This document shows positions 18,461-52,774 of a stretch of 64,000 bases of DNA, piece by piece (position 1 is the stretch's first letter; each line of letters starts with the position of its first letter). Source of the DNA: Phormidium ambiguum IAM M-71. Its GTDB lineage: Bacteria; Cyanobacteriota; Cyanobacteriia; Cyanobacteriales; Aerosakkonemataceae. A program made the translations under genes and the position numbers. A model generated the notes under the pieces. That model was not told the origin of the DNA, did not search any database, and was given only the letters and a program-made list of their open reading frames with translations. The stretch covers positions 1-64,000 of the forward strand of contig NZ_MRCE01000018.1 in the NCBI RefSeq assembly GCF_001904725.1. Reading direction: 5' to 3'.

Positions 18461-18575
18461 AAGCTTGTGCAATCGGTGTATTGTTTTAAGATAGCTCGAA
18501 AACCATAAATTCTGGCAGCACTAGCCCAGCAATTTCCAAATAAGTTCATCACATTGACGTACCACCGTCACAATT

Positions 18576-18604
18576 TTGACAACTCAATCAGTCAATATAA
18601 AAAT
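18576..18604 (+). promoter_or_regulatory. Putative promoter of the Yfr1 candidate
   Basis: A perfect -35 hexamer TTGACA (18576-18581) is followed after 17 bp by AAAAAT (18599-18604), a moderate -10; TATAAA at 18596-18601 is an alternative with a 14-bp spacer. Transcription would start near 18608-18612, just before the conserved small-RNA motif. Confidence 0.5.
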
Positions 18605-18607
18605 AGT

Positions 18608-18674
18608 TTCGTATTGCTCCTCACACACACACTAACAGTAAAAAGCCTGGAAGTCATGCCTCCAGGCTCTTTTA
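18608..18674 (+). ncRNA. yfr1: Candidate Yfr1 small regulatory RNA
   Basis: The stretch contains CTCCTCACAC (18617-18626), the core of the ultraconserved unpaired motif of cyanobacterial Yfr1 (ACUCCUCACAC; here the preceding base is G). A Rho-independent terminator follows: AGCCTGGA (18644-18651), 9-nt loop, TCCAGGCT (18661-18668), then CTTTTATT. A TTGACA promoter element precedes it. The predicted length of about 65 nt is in the range known for Yfr1. Yfr1 pairs through the CUCC element with mRNAs including outer-membrane protein mRNAs in Prochlorococcus and affects stress growth. Differences: the usual 5' stem-loop is weak here (AATA-GTTTCG-TATT only), and the locus is not the common guaB-trxA one. 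The hairpin can also end the minus-strand gene at 18761. Confidence 0.7.
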
Positions 18675-18690
18675 TTGTGAGATTAATCCT

Positions 18691-18752
18691 CTGTAAAATT
18701 GTGCTTAATCATAGCCCCTCCCCGTTTACGGGGAGGGGTTTGGGGTGGGGTT
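18691..18752 (+). repeat. Interspersed repeat A, copy 2
   Basis: A 62-bp unit starting CTGTAAAATTGTGCTTAATC, with a GC palindrome CCCCTCCCCG-TTTA-CGGGGAGGGG and a G/T-rich tail. It is nearly identical to 36035-36096, differing mainly in the loop and in one short stretch. It is a noncoding repeat between the Yfr1 candidate and the convergent gene at 18761. Confidence 0.85.
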
Positions 18753-18760
18753 CAGATCGA

Positions 18761-19168
18761 CTAAATAGCCAACATTTTTGTCACTTCTGCACTCATAAAA
18801 GCAATATCAGGATCGCGTTGAATAGCTCGGAAATACTGCTTTTCTAACCGAGTTCCCTCAGCACAAGGTTGGATTAAAACTCGTGCTTGTTCCAAAAGTT
18901 GCTCAGCTTCATTCAAAGTCACAGGTTCCTTGGAAGCTAAAAATTCATCAATCTGAACGATAAATTGAGAGATAGGACGCAACCAGCTAAACCATTCATC
19001 ACTAATCACTAATTGAAAAAAGTCATTGTTTGACTTGATGCGTCCGTGGAACTGTTCATATTCAACTCTTTCAGAATCGAGTAATGCTTTGTGAAGACGC
19101 AACAGAGTTTGTCGTAAATCACGCAGGCGTTGCAGTCTTGAATTTAATAAAGGATCGGTTGAAGTCAT
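18761..19168 (-). CDS. Hypothetical helical protein
   Basis: A 135-aa protein with no signal peptide or membrane segment, predicted mostly alpha-helical, with charged helices (LNSRLQRLRDLRQTLLRLHK near the N-terminus; SDEWFSWLRPISQFIVQIDEFLASKEPVTLNEAEQLLEQAR in the middle, given here as a region rather than a motif). I do not recognise the family. Many bacteria have similar small soluble proteins with a central FSWLRP-like segment, but I cannot give a function. It stands alone on the minus strand; the hairpin at 18644-18668 reads as AGCCTGGA...TCCAGGCT plus TTTTTA on its strand and probably ends its transcript. Confidence 0.65.
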   Translation of the reverse strand: MTSTDPLLNSRLQRLRDLRQTLLRLHKALLDSERVEYEQFHGRIKSNNDFFQLVISDEWFSWLRPISQFIVQIDEFLASKEPVTLNEAEQLLEQARVLIQPCAEGTRLEKQYFRAIQRDPDIAFMSAEVTKMLAI

Positions 19169-51191: not shown

Positions 51192-51293
51192 ATCTCAAAT
51201 TCTGTACTTTAATTACCCTTTTTCAACATTTTATAAATTTTTCCTAACGTACCCTAACTCACCACCAATCCAAGGTGATACAATCGACATCCA

Positions 51294-52774
<1,481 letters not shown>

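What the first reader, a model, noticed from the sequence alone, without database searches (positions are those of the whole stretch)
18576..18674. Candidate Yfr1 small RNA at a non-canonical locus
Within 100 bp there is a perfect TTGACA -35, CTCCTCACAC (the core of the ultraconserved Yfr1 motif), and a Rho-independent terminator with an 8-bp stem and T-run; predicted length about 65 nt. In most cyanobacteria I know of, Yfr1 is between guaB and trxA, so a copy beside a TPR gene and a hypothetical gene would be a rearranged or second locus. The usual 5' stem-loop is weak here.
Basis: partly seen in the sequence, partly recalled or inferred. Interest (0 to 1): 0.6.

Follow-up and report, generated by a model that had tools for sequence, protein, structure and literature searches.

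The report
Second Yfr1-motif small RNA gene
This stretch very probably encodes a 68-nucleotide regulatory RNA, a second relative of the cyanobacterial RNA Yfr1 that sits away from the usual Yfr1 gene, and its wider group shares a promoter layout that suggests control by a signal-responsive regulator.

Summary
CTCCTCACAC (18617-18626, the only copy in the window) lies between a promoter-like region and an 8-bp terminator hairpin. It is not Yfr1: the genome has a strong canonical Yfr1 (62.7 bits) between guaB and trxA on another contig, and this locus scores 12.5 bits against the Yfr1 model (cut-off 38) and 21.9 against Yfr10 (cut-off 43). It is an additional Yfr1-motif ("Yfr10-like") sRNA, a kind already reported in other cyanobacteria (PMC6778093). 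A homologous locus is in 10 of 10 searched genomes of its family, with changing neighbours, though the motif is decayed in several. A model of the wider class hits 59 of 388 genomes of the order. Many class members outside this family share a 5' hairpin and a promoter of 11-bp KYCAY repeats with a TANNNT box 15 bp downstream: 19 of 20 selected loci, 17 of 28 found without that selection, about 0.6 expected. That geometry resembles PhoB/OmpR-type activation. The window's lineage keeps only a diverged operator and lacks the 5' hairpin. No expression data were available.

The parts
18554..18585 (+). operator-like region: GACGT (18556), GTCAC (18567) and GACAA (18578) spaced 11 bp; diverged form of the 11-bp KYCAY direct repeats of the class
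   Evidence: sequence; aligned to homologs that have GTCAC-N6-GTCAA/GTCAT
18576..18581 (+). TTGACA; -35-like hexamer or third operator half-site
   Evidence: TTGACA-17-AAAAAT, 10 of 12; alignment to CGTCAA/TGTCAT in sister genera
18596..18601 (+). TATAAA, probable -10 box
   Evidence: TATAAT/TATAAA at the same place in L019/L020
18608..18676 (+). predicted small RNA (about 68 nt), Yfr1-motif class
   Evidence: model R2 49.4 bits (the window was in the training set); R1 103 bits (likewise); fold z -4.17; 5' end inferred from the -10
18617..18626 (+). CUCCUCACAC, 10 of the 11 nt of the Yfr1 motif ACUCCUCACAC (G in place of the first A); predicted unpaired
   Evidence: unpaired probability 0.94-1.0
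18644..18676 (+). Rho-independent terminator: 8-bp stem, 9-nt loop, CTTTTATT; on the - strand the same hairpin is followed by TTTTT

Best explanation
This is the gene of a small trans-acting RNA of the Yfr1-motif class, additional to the canonical Yfr1. Shown by sequence comparison: a conserved promoter region, an exposed CUCCUCACAC element, a terminator, and conservation in a family in different gene contexts. Inferred: transcription starts near 18608, most likely activated by a regulator bound to the repeats; the unstructured motif at the 5' end pairs with complementary GUGUGAGGAG stretches, either in mRNAs, competing with or adding to Yfr1, or in the 5' end of the genome's Yfr2-like RNA. 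It would thus couple a signal to the Yfr1/Yfr2 network while the canonical Yfr1 supplies the steady level.
For: A homologous locus in 10 of 10 searched genomes of the family at E <= 1.5e-10 (four of these ten were used to build R1). Neighbouring genes differ between genera, so the RNA and not a neighbour is what is kept. In sister genera the terminator stem stays paired through one-sided changes such as UG to CG and GU to AU (read), and the 5' stem AGTTAA/TTAACT of L091 is AGTAAA/TTTACT in L090. Canonical Yfr1 is separate. Class-wide covariation 0.285 against 0.177 shuffled, 0 of 500. Class-wide promoter geometry; the 11-bp pair is in 0 of 10 canonical Yfr1 upstreams (nine of the ten come from one family, so a narrow control). 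A Yfr2-like RNA is in the genome (37.0 bits, cut-off 41), with 12 nt of unbroken complementarity to this RNA against 10 nt for canonical Yfr1 (read).
Against: No transcript data. The Rfam Yfr1 and Yfr10 models do not reach their cut-offs, and in that permissive search unrelated families had E-values as good as Yfr10's 0.4. The motif is decayed at this locus in four of the ten family genomes (CTCCTTACAT, CTCCTGACAT, CACCTCACAA) and altered in a fifth (CTCCTCACGC); in G003 the terminator is also missing. So the function may be fading in parts of the family. The window's operator is degenerate: one exact core only, and none of the 8 members of this family tested has the 15-bp spacing. The whole-molecule duplex energy with Yfr2 is not better than with shuffled Yfr2 (-25.7 against a mean of -28.4). 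The triple repeat is not enriched genome-wide (12 against 17 for the control).
Confidence: 0.8

Rival explanations
1. A rearranged or duplicated canonical Yfr1.
For: Shares 10 nt of the motif, a terminator and the length.
Against: Canonical Yfr1 is intact at guaB-trxA; 12.5 bits against the Yfr1 model, cut-off 38; no 5' stem; its relatives score 42-72 bits with R2 while canonical Yfr1 scores 20.0 or 23.2 without filters.
Confidence: 0.05
2. The hairpin is only the (bidirectional) terminator of the 135-aa gene on the - strand, and the motif is a chance match.
For: The hairpin is followed by TTTTT on the - strand as well, downstream of the 135-aa ORF that ends at 18761.
Against: Promoter region, motif and terminator are kept together in a genus where the neighbours are other genes.
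Confidence: 0.08
3. A decaying sRNA copy: a former Yfr1-motif RNA losing its 5' hairpin, operator and, in sister genera, its motif.
For: The 5' hairpin of the class is missing here; motif decay in G003, G004 (C142), G007 and G009, terminator missing in G003; degenerate operator.
Against: In the window's genus the stretch is 90% identical with the motif intact, and five of the ten family genomes keep CTCCTCACAC at this locus.
Confidence: 0.15
4. A Yfr2-type (Rfam Cyano-1) RNA on the - strand.
For: Cyano-1 hit of 18.7 bits at 18576-18630 -.
Against: Below the cut-off of 41, E 4.59 genome-wide; a far better Cyano-1 (37.0 bits) is on another contig. The hit is what complementary motifs would give.
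Confidence: 0.02

Closest known systems
Yfr10-like / additional Yfr1-motif sRNAs (Prochlorococcus Yfr10, Synechocystis SyR5, MIT9313 Yfr104, Nostoc TSS 2515196r and 3750139f; PMC6778093)
   Same: An sRNA gene with the Yfr1 motif besides Yfr1, without conserved synteny
   Different: Motif preceded by G, not A; no 5' stem; Rfam Yfr10 model not reached; not next to Yfr2. Fig. S7 of that paper was not available, so orthology to the named RNAs is untested
Yfr1 (RF01116)
   Same: Motif in an unpaired stretch followed by a terminator; similar length
   Different: Other locus, no 5' stem-loop, far below the model cut-off; canonical copy present elsewhere
PhoB/SphR-type promoters (tandem 8-bp boxes with 3-bp linkers, about 10 bp upstream of the -10 in E. 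coli; PMC1906773 passages)
   Same: 11-bp period and short fixed distance to a TANNNT box in the class
   Different: Core is KYCAY, not the cyanobacterial SphR box CTTAACCT; the regulator is unknown; the window's copy is degenerate

Membership tests
Yfr1 (RF01116) | covariance-model score over the gathering cut-off | tested here: not met
   12.5 against 38 bits
Yfr1 (RF01116) | undecanucleotide ACUCCUCACAC (PMC2190773) | tested here: not met
   GCUCCUCACAC: 10 of 11
Yfr1 (RF01116) | 6-10 bp 5' stem-loop (PMC2190773) | tested here: not met
   no structure in 18610-18642
Yfr1 (RF01116) | 3' GC-rich terminator hairpin with U tail | tested here: met
   z -4.63 (the scanner did not list it; loop of 9)
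Yfr1 (RF01116) | location at guaB and/or trxA in most genomes (PMC2190773 Table 2) | tested here: not met
   neighbours are a TPR-like gene and a 135-aa ORF; the guaB-trxA site holds the real Yfr1
Yfr1 (RF01116) | abundant 54-69 nt transcript | not testable with these tools
   predicted about 68 nt only
Yfr10-like Yfr1-motif sRNAs (broad sense of PMC6778093) | sRNA with the Yfr1 motif encoded in addition to Yfr1 | tested here: met
   motif 10 of 11; expression not tested
Rfam Yfr10 (RF02362), narrow sense | covariance-model score over the gathering cut-off | tested here: not met
   21.9 against 43 bits, E 0.4
Rfam Yfr10 (RF02362), narrow sense | motif in a loop on top of a stem (PMC6778093) | tested here: not met
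   motif unpaired with no enclosing stem
Rfam Yfr10 (RF02362), narrow sense | gene next to a Yfr2-family gene (high-light Prochlorococcus) | tested here: not met
   the best Yfr2-like hit is on contig C3, not C18
Class modelled here (R2: 5' hairpin, motif, terminator) | R2 score | tested here: met
   49.4 bits, genome E 1.8e-7; the window was one of 20 training sequences
Class modelled here (R2) | 5' hairpin closing on the CU of the motif | tested here: not met
   best stem of the window (CAATAT/GTATTG) overlaps the -10 and does not close on CU
Class modelled here (R2) | 11-bp KYCAY repeats with TANNNT 15 bp downstream | tested here: not met
   window and its family: 0 of 8 loci at 15 bp; degenerate GACGT-GTCAC-GACAA at 11 bp

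The most novel reading that the evidence does not exclude
Many cyanobacteria carry, besides the guaB-trxA Yfr1, a second Yfr1-type sRNA gene whose promoter has one shared architecture (two to four 11-bp KYCAY repeats, -10 exactly 15 bp after the last core), so that one PhoB/OmpR-family response regulator feeds an environmental signal into the Yfr1/Yfr2 network. In the window's family the RNA was simplified to a bare 5' motif plus terminator, with a longer match to Yfr2.
Probability: 0.45. Interest if true: 0.58.

Novelty: new member of a known kind. Interest (0 to 1): 0.42.

Why it matters
[quoted passage not shown] The comparison here finds a shared 5' hairpin and a fixed promoter layout in a large set of such loci. 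That would give a way to find them in new genomes and a direct test for the regulator that controls them.

Tried and rejected
Wrong Rfam accession first (RF01117, a ciona microRNA). RF01702 (Cyano-2) searched as a supposed Yfr2 model: no match. RF01701 (Cyano-1) is the one whose 5' end is complementary to the motif; its identity with Yfr2 is inferred from the complementary, multi-copy pattern and recall.

Idea that Cyano-1 is a wrong-strand view of Yfr1-motif RNAs: dropped, because Cyano-1 is found in 252 of 291 genomes of the class (196 over the cut-off) with up to 8 matches in one genome, as expected of Yfr2. The CTCCTCACAC match at C3:30683-30692 is the antisense of the genome's Yfr2-like RNA, and some hits look like that type.

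Regulon search with GTCA-N7-GTCA-N7-GTCA (up to 1 mismatch) in the own genome: 12 matches against 17 for the reversed control, no enrichment. Duplex energy with Yfr2: no better than shuffles. Strict GTCA in the 28 unselected upstreams: 8 of 28 against a shuffle mean of 3.2 and maximum of 9, so the strict core alone is not convincing there; the wider KYCAY core was chosen after seeing these sequences.

The pattern search (71 of 388 genomes; 13 of 388 with a control match, counted by eye from the listing) mixes this class with canonical Yfr1, Yfr2 antisense and chance, so it was used only as a source of sequences. The window itself does not match that pattern. R1 hits beyond the family at E 5e-4 to 0.1 are mostly chance by eye; L057, L058, L061 and L068 looked real.

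The 28 loci and the 20 training sequences of R2 were picked by hand; I left out canonical Yfr1, Yfr2 antisense, loci without a terminator (such as L092, L093, L098, L107, L108, L128) and near-duplicates. In one search one hit (G135, L197) looks like canonical Yfr1 and some weak ones are doubtful; 59 of 388 may therefore be slightly too high, while the strict filters lose others (5 of the 10 genomes of the window's own family were found).

Literature: Yfr10 is named in 2 papers of the held library. Searches for Yfr1 with Pho box/SphR/response regulator/promoter (15 of 146 listed) and with direct repeats/RpaB/HLR1/OmpR (15 of 133 listed) showed no title or abstract start describing such a promoter for these RNAs. 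This covers the listings only, and subscription journals are mostly not held. No supplements were read. No paper was read whole.

Full report
OBSERVATION. The hairpin is far more stable than shuffles (z -4.63, 0 of 200). The 33 nt around the motif fold to nothing. No window-wide Rfam hit at gathering threshold covers the site. With permissive thresholds the related families score Yfr10 21.9 bits (cut-off 43, E 0.4), Cyano-1 on the minus strand 18.7 (cut-off 41) and Yfr1 12.5 (cut-off 38, E 4.8); unrelated families reach similar E-values in that search, so Rfam alone decides nothing.

IT IS NOT YFR1. The same genome (7.41 Mb, 90 contigs) has one Yfr1 over the cut-off, 62.7 bits, at C33:44254-44318. 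Its flanks read as an IMP dehydrogenase (393 aa) and a WCGPC thioredoxin (107 aa), i.e. guaB and trxA, named by reading the translations. In 60 of 60 genomes searched (this one and 59 relatives) there is a Yfr1 at E <= 0.001, in 57 of 60 over the cut-off. CTCCTCACAC occurs 15 times in the genome, against 4 for the reversed pattern. By eye only the canonical Yfr1 and this site are followed by a strong GC-rich terminator, and one of the 15 is the antisense of the genome's Yfr2-like RNA.

CONSERVATION. A DNA search of the own genome and 59 relatives gave a 90% match in the same genus, covering promoter, motif and terminator, and 70-72% matches in another genus of the family (alignments; matches further down that list are mostly chance). 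A sequence model of the four best (R1) finds the locus in 10 of 10 genomes of the family at E <= 1.5e-10 among 388 genomes of the order (four of the ten are training sequences). CTCCTCACAC is exact at this locus in five of the ten (G000, G001, G002, G006, G008); G005 has CTCCTCACGC; G003, G007, G009 and the C142 copy of G004 have decayed forms; G004 has a second copy with an intact motif; in G003 the terminator is missing. Neighbours differ: a TPR-like gene and a 135-aa ORF in the window; a UspA-like gene and a glucan phosphorylase in a second genus; others elsewhere (names by reading the translations). So the RNA with its promoter is the conserved unit.

A WIDER CLASS. A gapped pattern search and a scan of the named-genome collection (20 stretches, 19 with cyanobacterial titles, among them Nostoc, Anabaena, Iningainema, Scytonematopsis, Symplocastrum and Coleofasciculus) turned up many further loci. 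Their common plan is a 5' hairpin closing on the CU of the motif (for example AGCAAAC...GTTTGCT, AGTAGAC...GTCTGCT, AGTAAAC...GTTTACT, AGTGA...TCACT), then UCCUCACAC, then a terminator. Over 28 hand-picked loci the mean stem score is 6.0, against 3.9 in shuffles with a highest mean of 4.55 in 300. A covariance model R2 (20 sequences) scores 26 of 26 loci given at 42-72 bits (most are training sequences), canonical Yfr1 20.0 (23.2 without filters). Pair counts on the model-fitted alignment: covariation 0.285 against 0.177 shuffled (0 of 500) and 0.108-0.156 when slid; pairs changed on both sides 12 against 9.1 (6 of 500); further pair types 33 against 30.1 (61 of 500, not remarkable). The 5' helix has 75.8% of cells paired and 4 of 7 pairs with changes on both sides; the terminator helix is in poor register, 54.6%. 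That alignment is fitted to the structure and related sequences are not independent. R2 hits 59 of 388 genomes of the order at E <= 0.001, in 37 of 149 genera and 11 families (one hit, L197, looks canonical). The window itself scores 49.4 bits but lacks the 5' hairpin.

PROMOTER. Among the 28 loci, nearly all chosen for one GTCA-like core, a second GTCA at exactly 11 bp is found in 16, and at no other distance from 6 to 17 in any; shuffles 0.014. To avoid the selection I took the 28 R2 hits that were neither in the set nor the window (R2 sees nothing further upstream than 25 nt before the motif). Strict GTCA gives 4 of 28 at 11 bp and is not more frequent than the best shuffles (8 of 28; mean 3.2, maximum 9). 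With the core widened to KYCAY, a choice made after seeing these sequences, 14 of 28 have two cores 11 bp apart, against about 0.1 expected and 0 or 1 at every other distance from 5 to 19; 10 of 23 after removing near-duplicates. A TANNNT hexamer begins exactly 15 bp after a core in 19 of 20 selected loci outside the window's family, where I first saw it, and in 17 of the 28 others, against 0.6 expected, maximum 3 in 500 shuffles; that is 12 of the 23 non-redundant ones (combined). In the 28 the next most frequent distances are 23 (7 loci) and 12 (6 loci), most of them probably from six related loci with overlapping boxes. Canonical Yfr1 promoters: 0 of 10 have the 11-bp pair (nine of the ten are from one family). 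An 11-bp period with a short fixed distance to the -10 is the layout of PhoB/SphR sites (8-bp boxes, 3-bp linker, about 10 bp before the -10 in E. coli; PMC1906773, passages), but the cyanobacterial SphR box CTTAACCT is different, so the regulator is open. The resemblance to the E. coli PHO box CTGTCATA is recalled; the passage I saw prints it otherwise. In the window's family the spacing is different (0 of 8 loci at 15 bp) and the window has GACGT-GTCAC-GACAA at 11-bp steps, so its TTGACA is probably the descendant of a half-site.

MECHANISM. Shown: gene anatomy, conservation and an exposed motif (unpaired probability 0.94-1.0). Inferred: transcription from about 18608; pairing through CUCCUCACAC with mRNAs and with Yfr2. 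For Prochlorococcus, pairing of Yfr1 and Yfr10 with targets and with Yfr2 is experimental (PMC6778093: passages, among them the abstract, and section 9 read). The own genome has a Yfr2-like RNA at C3:30679-30746 (Cyano-1, 37.0 bits, just under the cut-off of 41). Its 5' end pairs without a break with 12 nt of this RNA (GCUCCUCACACA) and 10 nt of Yfr1 (read), but the energy of the best whole-molecule duplex is not better than for shuffled Yfr2, so this is suggestive only.

KNOWN OR NEW. Yfr1-motif sRNAs besides Yfr1 are known: Yfr10, Yfr12 and Yfr18 in Prochlorococcus (PMC2518516 passages), SyR5, Yfr104 and two Nostoc 7120 transcripts (PMC6778093 section 9). SyR5 stands first in a table of the most abundant non-rRNA, non-tRNA transcripts of Synechocystis (PMC3516471 passage). 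Yfr1's own features are taken from PMC2190773 (abstract and passages), Yfr2's from PMC2662882 (passages); PMC6974561 and PMC4734099 were seen as passages. The window locus is a new member of that kind, not a member of Rfam Yfr1 or Rfam Yfr10 as modelled. What I did not find in the listings searched is the shared hairpin-plus-operator architecture. PMC6778093 says that secondary structure and synteny are hardly conserved among Yfr10 homologs, which may hold across the phylum but not within the set found here.

Noticed in passing
G000:C3:30679-30746 + (L238): Yfr2-like RNA (Cyano-1, 37.0 bits) of this genome, just under the Rfam cut-off; explains one of the 15 CTCCTCACAC matches as its antisense.
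   Followed up: partly
G000:C38:3694-3703 - (L010) and G000:C45:17558-17567 - (L012): Two further intact motifs, scored 25.6 and 15.9 bits by R2 without filters; L012 has a tandem motif (TTCCTCACAC, ACTCCTCACAC) and an A+T hairpin with a T-run. Weak extra candidates.
   Followed up: no
G004:C68:76769-76887 + (L077): A second locus of the same type in one family member, with intact motif, while its other copy (C142) has a decayed one.
   Followed up: no
G002:C41:54313-54353 + (L078): A repeat of the terminator part of the RNA about 400 bp downstream of the main copy, without the motif.
   Followed up: no
L205, L206; G043, G083, G115 and G375: A second sub-type in family f33: TTAGTTAAGCTCCTCACACCACACTAAAAGCCGTGAAAC... 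and variants, in some genomes that also hold the hairpin type.
   Followed up: no
L118, L120, L122, L124, L126, L134: In several Nostoc-like genomes the sRNA lies near the same hypothetical gene family, and in some near a HemJ-like gene (name recalled), so synteny is kept locally there.
   Followed up: partly
window 18715-18738: A second strong G+C hairpin (CCCCTCCCCGTTTACGGGGAGGGG) between the sRNA and the 135-aa ORF.
   Followed up: no
window 51288-51381 +: TPP riboswitch, 63.9 bits.
   Followed up: no
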